From positions 1 through 13,534 of the forward strand of contig JAGMAN010000037.1 in assembly GCA_023130215.1 (NCBI GenBank): a DNA stretch of 13,534 nt, given 5' to 3'. Positions within the stretch are counted from its first letter, which is position 1. Each line of letters opens with the position of its first letter. Below are positions 1-5,775 of this stretch, piece by piece. The DNA comes from a bacterium (GTDB lineage Bacteria; NPL-UPA2; JAGMAN01). The position numbers were made by a program, and so were the translations under genes. The notes beneath the pieces were generated by a model. That model was not told the origin of the DNA, made no database searches, and saw only the letters and a program-made list of their open reading frames with translations.

Positions 1-1037
1 ACCAGGTTATCTCCGGTAAAAGGACTTCCTCCTCCGGCCGGAAGAACCATATAGCGCTCTTTTCTAAAGGCGCGGGCATGGCCGAGTTCATCAAGCATGC
101 CGGTGCTTAAAGGCGGCATTTCGGTATAGGGGTGAAAGGCAGAAACTATATCCACTTTTTTAACATCCCATCTTAAGTCGCGGCAAACCGTATAGGCAAA
201 AACCACTGACTCGTCTTCAGGATTGATGTTTTGTCCTATCTCAATTGACGCCGGGTCTATGACCGCTCCGTAGCCGCGCAGGCGCCATATCGTGTCATTT
301 ATTTCTTTTCGTATTTCTTCGGTTGCCACGGTCATGGAATAAGAAGCATAAAAGCTGGGGAGTCGTTTCTCGGCAGCAAGCTTCGTCATGTTATCCACAT
401 CTCTTACATATATATCTCTGTCTTTACGGCTTGGCGTTTCTATCCCCAATACAAAGTGTCTGACTTTTCTACCCGTAAGATGCGTTGCCCATTCAGCCCA
501 GTCTTCGCTTCTGGATACCTCCGAACCCAGCCAGCGCAGGATCCTCTCTAAGGTCATCCCTTTTTGATGCGCCAGCGTCTTTAAAGCATGCTTGCCGTAT
601 TCGGTTTTGAGACGCTTCATAATTTTCCACTCAGCGTCAATAAGGGTAACTATCCGCTGGGGCTTAAGCTCCGTGCCGATTATACGGTGGTCCTTAAATT
701 CAAGATTAACCCCGCGCCACTCGACGGAAGCGGGAGTTCTGACAATTACGTTCGTCGTCCCGGGAAGTTTATCTATTTCCCGCGCGATGGACAAGTAAGC
801 CTTCTCGCGCATAAGCCTCAGCTGATACTGGTAGCCGTCCAGGAGTTCTCCTATATATGAAGCCTGCTCGTACGCGTTTCTGGGATACATACCTGCCTGT
901 TTCAGAATCTCGTCAAATAGATTGAAAACTACTATTTTTCTTCCCGTCCGTGCTGCAAACTCCACCGTATCTTCAAGAAACCATGTAGACCTTAATCCTA
1001 CTATAGGTCCGGTTACTATGCTTACTACGTTCGGCAT
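1..1037 (-). CDS. AdkA-like P-loop domain fused to nucleoside 2-deoxyribosyltransferase-like domain (3' end outside window)
   Basis: The frame is open from ATG at 1037 to the window edge, giving 345 codons with no stop. An AGGGAGG site lies about 10 bases upstream of the ATG. Residues 1-145 resemble archaeal-type adenylate kinase: a first strand VVSIVTG, a P-loop-like GPIVGLRST that lacks the Lys of GKS/T, VVFNLFDEI at 37-45, and a late strand IVTLIDAEWKIMKRL at 129-143. A helical linker follows. Residues 228-345 look like the nucleoside 2-deoxyribosyltransferase fold: strand FYASYSMT, then VIDP, then WDVKKVDIVSAF, then PPLSTGMLDELGHARAF, where the Glu-containing helix resembles the family's catalytic region. 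The gene is last in the minus-strand operon, 22 bases after the EEP gene. Activity is unproven. It could bind or transfer nucleotides or bases, or act as a nucleotide-sensing effector. Domain calls come from visual pattern matching; the open frame is certain, the function is not. Confidence 0.6.
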   Translation of the reverse strand, partial: MPNVVSIVTGPIVGLRSTWFLEDTVEFAARTGRKIVVFNLFDEILKQAGMYPRNAYEQASYIGELLDGYQYQLRLMREKAYLSIAREIDKLPGTTNVIVRTPASVEWRGVNLEFKDHRIIGTELKPQRIVTLIDAEWKIMKRLKTEYGKHALKTLAHQKGMTLERILRWLGSEVSRSEDWAEWATHLTGRKVRHFVLGIETPSRKDRDIYVRDVDNMTKLAAEKRLPSFYASYSMTVATEEIRKEINDTIWRLRGYGAVIDPASIEIGQNINPEDESVVFAYTVCRDLRWDVKKVDIVSAFHPYTEMPPLSTGMLDELGHARAFRKERYMVLPAGGGSPFTGDNL

Positions 1038-1059
1038 TTTTTCTTTACCTCCCTGTTTT

Positions 1060-2058
1060 TTACAAATCCAGTGTCAGATAAGGCGGGTGATGGTCTGAAG
1101 GCTTCATCCCGGCAAACTTTCCGGGAAGTCCCTTAACCGGCAGCCGTTTGTGTAAAATCCCGGCACTTCCCTTTACTACGGAATTTCTAAGCTCCGGAGA
1201 AACCAGGATGTGGTCTATCCACGACCTCATCTCCTTTGGCTGGCCATAGCGCGATTCCGCAAGCGGATTAAGTATGCGGTCCAGGAAGTCTATGGTCCAG
1301 CGCACATCTTTACTTAAAGAATAATGGGGATTGTGCATAGTCTTGCCCGGCTGCCAGATGCTTCCCATCATAGGTTCCAGAAAACCGTGACCGAGCATAG
1401 CGGCGTATTTATCGAATTCCGGGCCGTCGTTCATATCGCCCATCACGGCCACTCTGCCCCGTCCGTCATCATCGATTAACCGGTCGAGCCTTTTTCTTAT
1501 TGCGTTTGCCTGAGCTCTCTGTTTCATCCGGTTTGCCCGGGAAAGTTTCTCATAGGCAAAAAGGTCTCCGGGGATGAATACTCCCTTCGATTTGGCATGA
1601 ATAAGAATAAAAGTAACCTTATCTTTAAGGCCTCCTCCCGATACGGTTACTTCAAAGGGAACGCGGTTCCACCAACTGTAGTACTCTTTTATACTGTCTC
1701 TGTCAGCGTCAAATTTATCTAATTTGAAATCCTTCAGGCTTTGCTGTTTAGAGCGTTTATTTATTTTTACTTTCAGGTTGCGCCGGAAGAGAAAAGCAAA
1801 GCCGAGCAGGCCTCTTTTTTCACCCTGGCAGACGCTGTATTTTCCATCCAGGTAGTAATCCACGAACTTTTCGCTGCGTGCCTGGGTCGGCGGAGCCTCC
1901 ACAAGGCCGATAATATCAGGGTTTATTTCCCGTATCATCGCGGCCAGAAGCCTGGCTCGCCAGTAATGAGAACTCTCTTTTCCCGGGATTTTGAGACTTC
2001 TTGGTACAAGGTCAACCATGTCCTCGCCGTTTAAGCTCATAATCTTTAACCTGGCCAT
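1060..2058 (-). CDS. endonuclease/exonuclease/phosphatase (EEP) family protein
   Basis: 332 residues, full length for an EEP-fold metal-dependent phosphodiesterase (DNase I/exonuclease III/sphingomyelinase superfamily). Landmarks are visible in order: opening strand LKIMSLNGEDM with the metal-site Asn (res 4-14); NPDIIGLVEAP with Glu54; FILIHAKSKG with His154; VAVMGDMNDGPEFD with Asp208 and Asn210; SWIDHILVSPEL with Asp282-His283; and the terminal PSDHHPPYL with Asp322-His323. All expected catalytic positions seem present, so it should be active on DNA, RNA, nucleotides or another phosphodiester. No signal peptide is visible, so it is probably cytoplasmic. The ATG at 2058 has AAGGAGG four bases upstream, close but usable; an internal ATG at residue 7 would leave the SD too far away. 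It lies between the broken small gene and the kinase/transferase gene in the same operon. Substrate cannot be read from sequence. Confidence 0.85.
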   Translation of the reverse strand: MARLKIMSLNGEDMVDLVPRSLKIPGKESSHYWRARLLAAMIREINPDIIGLVEAPPTQARSEKFVDYYLDGKYSVCQGEKRGLLGFAFLFRRNLKVKINKRSKQQSLKDFKLDKFDADRDSIKEYYSWWNRVPFEVTVSGGGLKDKVTFILIHAKSKGVFIPGDLFAYEKLSRANRMKQRAQANAIRKRLDRLIDDDGRGRVAVMGDMNDGPEFDKYAAMLGHGFLEPMMGSIWQPGKTMHNPHYSLSKDVRWTIDFLDRILNPLAESRYGQPKEMRSWIDHILVSPELRNSVVKGSAGILHKRLPVKGLPGKFAGMKPSDHHPPYLTLDL

Positions 2059-2059
2059 T

Positions 2060-2357
2060 TTACCTCCTTAAATATCCCATAGCCCCAGAGCGTGCAGGCG
2101 CAGAAACTGCGCGCTCCAGGTAGTAAATTCCGCTGTAGTCTCCAGCCTTCTCGGCAGGGGAATCTCCGGTCTTCCGGCAGCTTTGCCGGATGAAACGGAC
2201 TGCGGCGGTACCCGGTGATAAGAAATGCCCGGCCGCAGCTTGCCGCGGTCGCCAGCTCACTGCCGCAACCGTCAAATTCTCCGTTCAGCTTTTGACGGTG
2301 TATCAGCCAATCCAAGCCGTATCTTACAGAGTCCTGAAGCTCATTCTTTAGTTCCAT
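2060..2357 (-). pseudogene. small gene with a probable frameshift
   Basis: An ATG at 2357 overlaps the end of the TrlF-like gene by 17 bases. The first 50 or so residues (MELKNELQDSVRYGLDWLIH onward, through GSELATAASCGRAFLITG) read like a real protein and loosely recall one repeat of the prenyltransferase/squalene-cyclase alpha-toroid family. Further on, the frame loses protein character and runs into the EEP start. Near the four-C run (complement of 2157-2160), a one-base change would join it to a frame reading PAEKAGDYSGIYYLERAV and stopping at 2060-2062, one base before the EEP ATG. That frame has G-rich first codon positions typical of genes. The third frame also reads plausibly, ending LETTAEFTTWSAQFLRLHAL before a TAA inside the EEP SD. 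I cannot decide between a true pseudogene, an assembly error, or programmed frameshifting. Function unknown. Confidence 0.45.
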
Positions 2358-4314
2358 ATCTAATCGCCCTTTTTTTAAACGACTTTAACCCGCCTTCCAT
2401 CAGGTTAATAAGGTGCTCCTTCCGCTCCTCCTCATCAATGGAAAAACCCGAGTTAATACCGGTTAATTTCTTGCCTTTTGTGCTTAACAAAACGTAATTT
2501 TCCGGGTCCGGATTTACGGCCAAAATCGGATTGCCCGTAAATAATATAATTTGCCGTAAATCTTTATACTTCTTGATGATAGGAACGAGAAAATTTACAA
2601 TATCTTTGTTATCAAAATTACTTTCAGGCGCGTCAATTATTAACGGCCCGAAATTACCGCTTACAACTATCATAGAAATCATGGCGATTCTTCTCAAACT
2701 ATTACGCAGCTTGAAAAAATTCATCATCTTCACTTTTCCGGTATGCCAGTTAACATTTACGTGCAGCTTGTATCTGCCGTTATCCGCTTCCGCGTAAAGA
2801 AGCTGTTCTTCTTTTGCTTCAAGAAAATTCGGAATAGAAAATATCTTGTTAAATTTATCGACATTCCGTTTTGTAGGCTTTCCGAAATGTCTTATTAAAA
2901 ACGCGTTCAAATCATTCCTGGAGGAAATCAATTTCTCGATTTTATCCGAATGGTAAAATTTGGGTTCTATCATCAATTCCTTCAGCCGGCCCGTATTGAT
3001 TCCGGCTACTGTTCCTTTATTCTTGTTTATTGAATATAATTCTACAAAATCTTTCTCATTATCATTGCAAAAAGCATAATGATACAGCTTTGAATCAATT
3101 ATCTTTTCAACGAACAGCTTAACGTCCCCTTTGATTTTTGCGGAACCGGGCTTTACGGCCTTCTGCATCAATTGGAAAATGCACGATTTGCCCGACTCCT
3201 TCTCTCCGGCAACACAGTTAAGGTGACGGTTAAATCTTATGAAACGCCTGCCGAAATATTCATTTTTTATCTCCACGCCGTATATGTAGAGACCTTTTGT
3301 TACCCTCTTGTGAAGTTCAGATATTCTGGCCCTTGAGGCGGGAACGGACACCGCGATTTTTAACCCGGCGAAAGACGGGGCCGTCATCTTTAAAAAAGTG
3401 AACCTTTTGCCTATCGATTTCAAATCGTGCGCGTCCGAACCCTGAAGATATGTAATTGGGGCAACATCTTTCTTTATCCTTAACGATTTAATCCAGTTCT
3501 TTATTGTCATTTTGAGCTTTTTATCCTGCCGGCTAAACTTTGAGGGATTCACGACTTCAACAGCTAATAACTTCTCGTTACAAAACACGTTTTTCATCGC
3601 CCCGCTGTTAAGTTTGTAAAGTTTCAATAAGGCCTGGTCGCTTCCGTCTATATGTGCGATTATGGAGAGCCCGCCTTTTTGACGGATTAAATCCACGGCA
3701 TCTATTATGCTTCTTTTCCCGACCTTAGGATTTCTTCCCCATTCCTTAATGCTAAAACCTACTTCCTCCAAAAGGTCACATATTACAAAATGAATCGCCC
3801 GCCGGGGATCATGCGGCGGAAATACCGCCAGAATATGAACCCCCGTGCAGCTTATCTCCGCGCCCGGCAATATGGTTATAACCTTTCTACCTGCTTTTGC
3901 ATTTATCTTCTCAGCCTCGTCATCAATTATTTCGTACCACATCGGAGCCTTTAAATCCATTACGCCGGTTTTGGAACCTGCGTCAGGCCACAATGTCCCT
4001 ATGGCATTATGGTCGGTTACAGCCACCACTGAAAGCTTTTCTTCGACAAATCTTTTAACTATCTTCGCGGCGACTTTTCTCGCGTCAGCCAGTATTTTTT
4101 CCTGAACCTTTTTAATCTTGCCGCAATGTTTCTCAAAATCGCCATCCCGGCTGGGATATTTGATTCTGTAGGGATTAAAATTATAGCGGTTTTTTCCTCT
4201 CGCGTCCTCAGATGCCGGCGTATGAAAATGCAAGTCCACTTTGTAAAACCTGGCCCCGAAATTAACCTTCCTTACTTTTTCAAAGCTGGAGATTATATCT
4301 TTTTGAGTTTTCAC
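2341..4314 (-). CDS. TrlF-like PHP phosphoesterase-ATPase
   Basis: 657 residues from a GTG at 4314, chosen because AAGGAGG lies nine bases upstream; a TTG 24 bases further out would put that SD inside the coding region. Residues 25-300 form a PHP metal-phosphoesterase domain: DLHFHTPAS with HxH (29/31), AVTDHNAIG (His102), ILPGAEISCTGVHILAVFPP (Glu153, His160), LSIIAHIDG (His221), and LQGSDAHDL (Asp294, His296). The rest is an SMC/ABC-type ATPase: Walker A GEKESGKS (370-377) and Walker B GPLIIDAPESN (Asp561, Glu564), followed by DNKDIVNFLVP. Only about 185 residues separate the Walkers, so there is no long coiled coil and it is shorter than many TrlF-type proteins. The usual H-loop THN is FTGNP here, so the switch His is missing. 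PHP-ATPase fusions are found in defence and DNA-processing loci. It is the first gene of the operon and probably an ATP-gated nuclease or phosphoesterase. Confidence 0.8.
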   Translation of the reverse strand: MKTQKDIISSFEKVRKVNFGARFYKVDLHFHTPASEDARGKNRYNFNPYRIKYPSRDGDFEKHCGKIKKVQEKILADARKVAAKIVKRFVEEKLSVVAVTDHNAIGTLWPDAGSKTGVMDLKAPMWYEIIDDEAEKINAKAGRKVITILPGAEISCTGVHILAVFPPHDPRRAIHFVICDLLEEVGFSIKEWGRNPKVGKRSIIDAVDLIRQKGGLSIIAHIDGSDQALLKLYKLNSGAMKNVFCNEKLLAVEVVNPSKFSRQDKKLKMTIKNWIKSLRIKKDVAPITYLQGSDAHDLKSIGKRFTFLKMTAPSFAGLKIAVSVPASRARISELHKRVTKGLYIYGVEIKNEYFGRRFIRFNRHLNCVAGEKESGKSCIFQLMQKAVKPGSAKIKGDVKLFVEKIIDSKLYHYAFCNDNEKDFVELYSINKNKGTVAGINTGRLKELMIEPKFYHSDKIEKLISSRNDLNAFLIRHFGKPTKRNVDKFNKIFSIPNFLEAKEEQLLYAEADNGRYKLHVNVNWHTGKVKMMNFFKLRNSLRRIAMISMIVVSGNFGPLIIDAPESNFDNKDIVNFLVPIIKKYKDLRQIILFTGNPILAVNPDPENYVLLSTKGKKLTGINSGFSIDEEERKEHLINLMEGGLKSFKKRAIRYGTKE

Positions 4315-4323
4315 CCGGGCTAT

Positions 4324-4330
4324 CCTCCTT
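4324..4330 (-). promoter_or_regulatory. Shine-Dalgarno site that fixes the TrlF-like start
   Basis: The minus strand reads AAGGAGG, nine bases before GTG at 4314. It supports GTG rather than the in-frame TTG at 4338 as start. It also lies only six bases beyond the U-tract of the leader hairpin, so folding of that hairpin could affect translation as well as transcription. Confidence 0.75.
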
Positions 4331-4336
4331 AAAAAC

Positions 4337-4375
4337 AAAAAACCCCTTTCAGACTTTTCAGTTCCGAGGGGGTTT
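4337..4375 (-). terminator. intrinsic-terminator-like hairpin in the operon leader (attenuator candidate)
   Basis: On the minus strand, AAACCCC (complement of 4369-4375) pairs with GGGGTTT (complement of 4340-4346) around an interior carrying GGAACTGAAAAGTC. It is followed by T6, G, T5. It lies between the promoter at 4464-4492 and the first gene's SD, so it would stop transcription unless bypassed. There is no gene upstream on this strand that it could serve as an ordinary 3' terminator. Confidence 0.6.
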
Positions 4376-4450
4376 AACCGCCGCTCAACAAACTTCGTAT
4401 TTTAAGGGAAAACAGGTGACCCCTTTTTTTTCCTACTGCTTTAATTTCAA
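4340..4450 (-). repeat. leader repeat copy A
   Basis: This is the copy next to the TrlF-like gene. It shares ordered blocks with copy B (4553-4658): TTGAAA, then CCYTTAAAAT about 50 bases on, a TTGA block, GG, AAACCCC, and a 16-base identical block CGGAACTGAAAAGTC plus one preceding T, then the GGG-T-tract. Variable spacers separate conserved blocks, as expected of a structured leader RNA rather than of a simple recent duplication. Confidence 0.55.
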
Positions 4451-4516: not shown

Positions 4517-4550
4517 AAAGCCCTCTGCTTTTTTTAACCCAACTATCCAT

Positions 4551-4586
4551 AAAAAAAACCCGGACTTTTCAGTTCCGAAGGGGTTT
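4551..4586 (-). terminator. second terminator-like hairpin (leader copy B)
   Basis: On the minus strand, AAACCC (complement of 4581-4586) pairs with GGGTTT (complement of 4556-4561), with inner GGAAC/GTCC pairing across a TGAAAA loop, and an eight-base T-tract (4558-4551). No coding region on this strand ends into it within the window. It could insulate the operon from upstream transcripts, or be a leftover leader. Confidence 0.55.
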
Positions 4587-4658
4587 GGCCATCATTCAAT
4601 CAACCTTGCATTTTAAGGAAAAATAGAACCGTTGTCTTTATCTACTACCTCGTTTCAA
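4553..4658 (-). repeat. leader repeat copy B
   Basis: Diverged partner of copy A with the same block order and nearly the same spacing (TTGAAA to TTAAAAT is about 48 bases here and 51 in A). Unlike A, it has no convincing promoter directly upstream and no gene after its hairpin. Confidence 0.5.
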
Positions 4659-4666
4659 TTAAATAG

Positions 4667-5001: not shown

Positions 5002-5775
5002 ATGTTAATGAAGAAGATATCTTTATTTTTCTTGTCGTTTATTTTGGCAGCTTTTATCATCCCTTCAATATATGCTCAAACTCCTACCCAAATCGCACCA
5101 CAGATAAAAGTTTTATTCTCACCACAGGATAACTGTGCGCAGGAGATTGTTTCAGAGATCGATAAAGCAAAAGATTATGTCTATGTGGCGATGTATTATT
5201 TTACCTCAAGGCCTATTGCCCAGGCTTTAATCAGGGCAAGGGATAGAGGCGTGGATGTTAAGGTCTGTCTGGATGAAGAGCAGCCCACCTATGAATATTC
5301 CAAGAGCAGATTTTTAGAGAACAAAGGCATCAATATGAAACTAATAGGCGGCTCAGGTATTATGCATAACAAATTTTGCATTATCGATGATCACATTACG
5401 CTCACTGGCTCATGCAACTGGACCGTCAGTGCGGATTTAAAAAACGATGAGAACCTGTTAATTATAGAATCTGAAGAAATAGCCAGGATATACAAAGAGC
5501 AGTTTAATAAATACTGGAATGGCACTTATATAGATACCTGTGAATATAGAAACGAGAGTAGGTTAGAGAAGGTCCCAGTGGCTACAGGTACTGTTTTGCC
5601 CATGCCTAAATCTTCATCTAAAGGTAAATATGTTGGCCATAAAAAGAGTAAGAAGCTTCATTATCCCTATTGCAGATGGGCTCAGAAGATGAATTCAGAG
5701 AATCAAATCTGGTTTAAGAGCCGCCAGCAGGCAATCGATAAAGGTTATGTTCCTTGCAAGGTGTGTAAACCCTAA
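5002..5775 (+). CDS. secreted single-HKD phospholipase D-family nuclease with Ada-like C-terminal cysteine module
   Basis: 257 residues. ATG at 5002 is followed by an in-frame ATG at 5008; both give a signal peptide (basic KK, then hydrophobic LFFLSFILAAFIIPSIYA), so the product is exported. Residues about 33-172 are a PLD domain with one HKD motif, HNKFCIIDDHITLTGSCNW (H-x-K-x4-D then GSxN), so the enzyme probably acts as a homodimer like Nuc/NucT-type nucleases. The last 50 residues contain YVGHKKSKKLHYPYC, then IWFKSRQQAIDKGYVPCKVCKP. This resembles the Cys-rich Ada-type metal-binding module often attached to extracellular nucleases. Likely role: degrading extracellular or periplasmic DNA/RNA for nutrition or uptake; phospholipase activity is possible but less likely for this architecture. 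It has its own promoter at 4853-4881. Confidence 0.85.
   Translation: MLMKKISLFFLSFILAAFIIPSIYAQTPTQIAPQIKVLFSPQDNCAQEIVSEIDKAKDYVYVAMYYFTSRPIAQALIRARDRGVDVKVCLDEEQPTYEYSKSRFLENKGINMKLIGGSGIMHNKFCIIDDHITLTGSCNWTVSADLKNDENLLIIESEEIARIYKEQFNKYWNGTYIDTCEYRNESRLEKVPVATGTVLPMPKSSSKGKYVGHKKSKKLHYPYCRWAQKMNSENQIWFKSRQQAIDKGYVPCKVCKP

What the first reader, a model, noticed from the sequence alone, without database searches (positions are those of the whole stretch)
1..4314. Candidate unrecognised defence-type operon: PHP-ATPase, EEP enzyme, kinase/transferase fusion
Three large intact genes and one broken small gene share strand and tight spacing (17-base overlap, 1-2 bases, 22 bases). Predicted activities are a PHP phosphoesterase gated by an SMC-like ATPase, an EEP nuclease/phosphatase and a nucleotide-handling fusion. 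TrlF-type PHP-ATPases are known from defence loci; I do not recall this combination as a named system. Having two different metal phosphoesterases plus a nucleobase or nucleotide enzyme suggests either sensing and destruction of foreign DNA, or making and breaking a nucleotide signal.
Basis: partly seen in the sequence, partly recalled or inferred. Interest (0 to 1): 0.75.

Follow-up and report, generated by a model that had tools for sequence, protein, structure and literature searches.

The report
Two gene modules, not one system
A bacterial contig end carries a shortened version of a known anti-phage-type nuclease gene and, behind it, a separate pair of nucleotide-handling genes whose closest relatives sit in Asgard archaeal genomes; nothing found shows that they form one defence system.

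Summary
The genes are real, but "three large intact genes" is wrong. The window is a whole contig (13,534 bp), and the third gene runs off its end (345 of about 390 residues seen). The tight spacing between the first two large genes depends on a small broken ORF that matches no family; the actual gap is 282 bp.

Module 1 is a compact TrlF/Ppl-like PHP-ATPase: the PHP active site and Walker A and B are intact, but the coiled coil and the ABC signature are missing. Its only full-length relative found (56% identity) stands without the other two genes.

Module 2 is an EEP phosphohydrolase and an adenylate-kinase-like/deoxyribosyltransferase (NDT) fusion. The kinase part has lost its P-loop; the NDT residues are kept. 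Closest relatives lie in Asgard-phylum genomes (65% and 68%). In one of these the EEP again lies near an NDT-like gene, a weak sign of an EEP-NDT link. A distant fusion relative lies in a nucleoside-salvage cluster.

Neither Asgard genome has a detectable PHP-ATPase. I read this as a probable single-gene defence nuclease beside an unrelated nucleotide or nucleoside pair. A three-part defence system is not supported, though not excluded because the operon is cut off.

The parts
2341..4314 (-). Compact TrlF/Ppl-like PHP-ATPase, 657 aa, GTG start; PHP motifs H29xH31, D101-H102, E153, H221, D294xH296; Walker A 370-377, Walker B 559-564; no coiled coil, no ABC signature
2046..2357 (-). Small ORF or broken remnant between PHP-ATPase and EEP; no family match; possible toroid-repeat remnant only by eye
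1060..2058 (-). EEP (endonuclease/exonuclease/phosphatase) superfamily hydrolase, 332 aa; N10, E54, D-x-N-D at 208-211, DH at 282-283, DH at 322-323 (numbered from Met1); 65% identical to an Asgard-genome fragment
1..1037 (-). Adenylate-kinase-like domain with a lost P-loop, fused to a nucleoside 2-deoxyribosyltransferase-like domain; cut by the contig end (345 of about 390 aa)
4316..4450 (-). Leader element copy 1, directly upstream of the PHP-ATPase; ends in a CCCC...GGGGTTTTTT hairpin just before the ribosome-binding site
4540..4660 (-). Leader element copy 2, imperfect direct repeat of copy 1; the shared 15-mer occurs nowhere else in the genome

Best explanation
The stretch holds two independent modules that happen to be neighbours on one strand. 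(1) A compact TrlF/Ppl-like PHP-ATPase. It is most likely a stand-alone metal-dependent nucleic-acid phosphoesterase whose activity is controlled by nucleotide binding to the ATPase part; by analogy with Ppl, ATP/NTP holds the PHP nuclease off and falling NTP pools plus free 3' ends release it. Without coiled-coil arms and ABC signature it probably does not work as a DNA-tethering SMC machine. (2) An EEP phosphohydrolase plus a pseudo-adenylate-kinase/NDT fusion. These probably work together on a nucleotide or nucleoside: the EEP removes or cleaves a phosphate or phosphodiester, and the NDT domain cuts or transfers the base through Glu317, with the kinase-like domain serving as a nucleotide-binding or structural part. 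The second module was probably exchanged between this bacterium and Asgard archaea. Shown here: domain content, motif retention and loss, neighbourhoods. Inferred: catalysis, regulation, substrates, transfer.
For: PHP-ATPase: TrlF model 229 bits, Ppl 124 bits; PADLOC Ppl 2.9e-26; complete PHP motif set and Walker A/B conserved in both compact members; alignment with the genome's own 945-aa TrlF shows loss of the coiled coil and replacement of SAGQQ by xSLRR; the relative in G293 lacks the other genes nearby; Ppl mechanism from PMC12904381. Separate histories: GC 0.41 for the PHP-ATPase against 0.48-0.49 for EEP and fusion; 282-bp gap; no PHP-ATPase in the Asgard genomes with close EEP or fusion relatives. 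EEP-NDT pair: in Asgard-phylum genome G129 the 65%-identical EEP is followed, after one 798-aa gene, by an NDT-like protein (hhalign against the fusion family E 4e-8). Salvage role of the fusion family: in G333 a member lies in a cluster with pyrimidine-nucleoside phosphorylase, phosphoribosyltransferase, DeoC, BtpA, uridine kinase and thymidine kinase. NDT residues including E317 invariant in six members, canonical P-loop absent in all six.
Against: The genes are co-directional and could be one transcript. The contig ends inside the third gene, so partners may be missing. The compact PHP-ATPase was found only twice and the close fusion only twice, so 'never together' rests on very few loci. 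The EEP-NDT parallel rests on one 3.7-kb archaeal contig. The salvage-cluster relative is only about 26% identical to the window's fusion. G293's PHP-ATPase lies 6.4 kb from a type IIG restriction gene, too far to count as linked but compatible with a defence role.
Confidence: 0.5

Rival explanations
1. All genes form one multi-gene anti-phage system: the PHP-ATPase senses NTP loss or DNA ends and degrades nucleic acid, while the EEP and NDT fusion deplete nucleotides or make or break a signal.
For: Same strand and order, ribosome-binding sites at each gene, 22-bp EEP-fusion gap; Ppl-like defence relatives; NDT-like domains occur as retron effectors (own knowledge); all three genes undetected in the two incomplete same-genus genomes.
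Against: No second locus with the trio; no PHP-ATPase in the Asgard genomes with close EEP or fusion relatives; EEP and fusion match no PADLOC model; a 282-bp gap and a GC difference separate the first gene; distant fusion relatives lie in salvage or other non-defence contexts.
Confidence: 0.15
2. All three act in nucleotide or nucleic-acid housekeeping (RNA or DNA end trimming, repair, nucleoside salvage) and none is a defence gene.
For: Fusion relative in a nucleoside-salvage cluster and beside deoxyhypusine synthase; PHP-ATPase of G293 beside pdxJ and a GTPase gene.
Against: Patchy, rare distribution: one full-length compact PHP-ATPase besides the window in 290 and 317 partly overlapping genome sets; strongest matches are TrlF/Ppl; TrlF relatives are common on plasmids.
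Confidence: 0.2
3. Decaying acquired island: the broken small ORF and patchy presence mean that the genes are remnants without present function.
For: Small ORF without consistent coding frame.
Against: The large genes keep complete catalytic motifs and 56-68% identity to relatives over the aligned length.
Confidence: 0.08

Closest known systems
TrlF family AAA-like ATPase (NCBIfam NF045780)
   Same: Same order of domains: N-terminal PHP, then split ABC-type ATPase; best profile match, 229 bits
   Different: 657 aa against 944; coiled-coil insert missing; ABC signature replaced; below the curated cut-off of 350 bits
Ppl anti-phage protein (NF042955; PADLOC Ppl)
   Same: PHP nuclease with NTPase part; matches the PHP-to-Walker A region in both compact members
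   Different: 124 bits against a cut-off of 1000; shorter, no coiled coil; no activity known
EEP superfamily (Pfam PF03372)
   Same: Above gathering score (52.4 against 24.5) with the catalytic residues present
   Different: Own branch; no PDB relative by sequence; relatives in diverse contexts
Adenylate-kinase-like (AAA_17) plus nucleoside 2-deoxyribosyltransferase (PF05014) fusions
   Same: Same architecture in five distant bacterial proteins and one Thorarchaeota protein
   Different: No library names the fusion; the window protein itself reaches no Pfam model for either half; P-loop lost in all six examined

Membership tests
TrlF family | Score above the NCBIfam cut-off (350 bits) | tested here: not met
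   229.1 bits
TrlF family | PHP domain with metal-site motifs | tested here: met
   H29xH31, D101-H102, E153, H221, D294xH296, also in L031
TrlF family | SMC-like ATPase with coiled coil and ABC signature | tested here: not met
   Walker A and B present, coiled coil and signature absent
Ppl defence protein | Score above the NCBIfam cut-off (1000 bits) | tested here: not met
   124.4 bits
Ppl defence protein | NTP-inhibited 3'-5' ssDNA exonuclease giving phage protection | not testable with these tools
   Mechanism known to me only from PMC12904381 for E. coli Ppl
EEP superfamily | Pfam PF03372 above gathering score, catalytic N/E/DxN/D/H | tested here: met
   52.4 bits; residues present
Nucleoside 2-deoxyribosyltransferase-like | Pfam PF05014 match | tested here: inconclusive
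   Window protein: none; aligned relatives match below the cut-off, 18.6-27.8 bits against 28.8
Nucleoside 2-deoxyribosyltransferase-like | Conserved Tyr, Asp and nucleophile Glu | tested here: met
   Y230, D261, D287, D296, E317 invariant in six members; catalytic assignment by analogy, own knowledge
Adenylate kinase / P-loop kinase | GxxxxGK[S/T] P-loop | tested here: not met
   Absent in all six members, although PDB 6ln3 adenylate kinase matches the N-terminal half, E 2e-4
Multi-gene defence system | Repeated co-occurrence of the three genes in unrelated genomes | tested here: not met
   few loci, so weak

The most novel reading that the evidence does not exclude
A mobile nucleotide-targeting system shared between bacteria and Asgard archaea whose core is an EEP hydrolase plus an NDT enzyme, with lineage-specific accessory parts (compact Ppl-like nuclease here, a 798-aa protein of no known family in the Asgard locus).
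Probability: 0.12. Interest if true: 0.7.

Novelty: new variant of a known kind. Interest (0 to 1): 0.35.

Why it matters
The compact PHP-ATPase is a natural test of which parts of Ppl/TrlF proteins are needed: it keeps the nuclease and nucleotide-binding sites but has lost the arms and the ABC signature. If it still protects against phage, the NTP-sensing model gains support over an SMC-like DNA-loop model. The EEP-NDT pair, if confirmed, would be an unnamed nucleotide-processing unit found on both sides of the bacteria-archaea divide.

Tried and rejected
AlphaFold model of the fusion from two sequences was too poor to use (mean pLDDT 38.9), so no fold search was run. Rfam found no known RNA in the leader region; single-sequence folds of the leader copies were not clearly better than shuffles. 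Small ORF as a prenyltransferase-toroid remnant (L003 has such a gene beside the fusion): only a 14-residue match at E 0.10 and no Pfam hit, so not claimed. Viral contigs: no relative of the fusion or of the 798-aa protein, only distant PHP-ATPase and EEP relatives. Plasmids and phages: no match to fusion or EEP. Papers: nothing found on TrlF biology or on kinase-NDT fusions.

Full report
What is there. The window is a complete contig (C68, 13,534 bp) of a 1.01-Mb, 136-contig genome that is 90% complete. On the minus strand lie, in order of transcription, a PHP-ATPase (4314-2341), a small doubtful ORF (2357-2046), an EEP protein (2058-1060) and a fusion protein (1037 to beyond base 1). Each of the three large genes has a purine-rich ribosome-binding site. 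The third gene is cut by the contig end: its 68%-identical relative in a Thorarchaeota contig has 390 residues against 345 seen here.

Spacing. The 17-base and 22-base figures are correct, but the first depends on the small ORF. That ORF matches no family even at E 10, and no frame in the gap gives a consistent coding signal. Leaving it out, 282 bp separate the PHP-ATPase from the EEP gene, and only EEP and fusion are tightly coupled. The PHP-ATPase also differs in base composition (41% GC against 48-49% for EEP and fusion).

PHP-ATPase. Its best profile is NCBIfam TrlF (229 bits, cut-off 350), then Spaf_1101 and Ppl; PADLOC gives Ppl at 2.9e-26. All PHP metal-site motifs and Walker A and B are present and shared with the 56%-identical, full-length relative in G293. 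Aligned with the 945-residue TrlF of the same genome (contig C26), both compact members lack the coiled coil and have xSLRR where TrlF has SAGQQ. The G293 gene lies between pdxJ and a GTPase gene, without EEP or NDT neighbours; a type IIG restriction gene lies 6.4 kb away. A review states that E. coli Ppl is a single-gene 3'-5' ssDNA exonuclease, held inactive by NTPs on both domains and released by nucleotide depletion and 3'-OH ends (PMC12904381). I infer a similar role here; this is analogy, not a test.

EEP. Pfam PF03372 is matched above its gathering score and the catalytic residues are present. Among 290 bacterial genomes only two weak relatives were found. Among 221 genomes of the phylum of the Thorarchaeota record one fragment is 65% identical (G129). 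That fragment starts a 3.7-kb contig and is followed by a 798-residue protein of no known family and then by an NDT-like protein.

Fusion. Its N-terminal half resembles adenylate kinase (PDB 6ln3, E 2e-4; AAA_17 in distant relatives), but no member has a canonical P-loop. Its C-terminal half is NDT-like: distant relatives match PF05014 below cut-off, the G129 NDT protein aligns with the family profile at E 4e-8, and Y230, D261, D287, D296 and E317 are invariant in six members. A pattern scan of about 85,000 species genomes found only the Thorarchaeota relative; that scan detects close relatives only. Distant members (about 20-28% identity) lie beside deoxyhypusine synthase, in other non-defence neighbourhoods, and in one case inside a nucleoside-salvage cluster.

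Is it one system? The trio was not found anywhere else. The genomes with the close EEP or fusion relatives have no detectable PHP-ATPase, and the genome with the other compact PHP-ATPase shows no EEP or fusion beside it. An EEP relative near an NDT gene occurs twice if the window and G129 are both counted. With two loci this is a lead, and I computed no statistic for it. The archaeal bins are drafts, so misplacement of L003 or L048 is possible; I did not test their origin beyond the record title and the phylum sampling.

Verdict. Two neighbouring modules: a compact Ppl/TrlF-like nuclease, probably a single-gene defence protein of a new variant, and an EEP-NDT pair that probably handles nucleotides or nucleosides and has its closest relatives in Asgard archaeal genomes. 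The single three-gene defence system is not supported but, with the operon truncated and the families so thinly sampled, not excluded.

Noticed in passing
window 4316-4450 and 4540-4660, minus strand: Two imperfect copies (roughly 110 bp) of a leader element lie upstream of the PHP-ATPase, the first ending in a terminator-like hairpin right before its ribosome-binding site. The shared 15-mer occurs only twice in the genome. Attenuator, decoy or duplicated promoter region are all possible; a TTGACA-18-AAAAAT promoter-like site lies between them.
   Followed up: partly
L035 (G000 contig C26) 267-4757: The same genome carries a full-length 945-aa TrlF directly followed by a 550-aa serine-recombinase-like gene, next to genes that look like miaB/miaA, which suggests an integrated mobile insertion.
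   Followed up: partly
window 5002-5775, plus strand: Secreted-looking PLD-family protein with a C-terminal zinc-binding Ada-like domain (PF13091, PF02805), divergent from the PHP-ATPase; PADLOC DrmC hits look like generic PLD similarity.
   Followed up: no
L048 525-2921: 798-aa protein of no known family between EEP and NDT in an Asgard-phylum genome; no relatives in plasmids or viral contigs.
   Followed up: partly
L034 10049-12311 (G332; same pair in G598, L007): A deoxyhypusine synthase gene directly followed by a kinase-like/NDT fusion in two bacterial genomes of one genus, an unexplained pairing.
   Followed up: no
L003 6105-7004: Prenyltransferase alpha-alpha toroid protein next to the Thorarchaeota fusion gene; the window's small ORF has a 14-residue resemblance, not significant.
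   Followed up: partly
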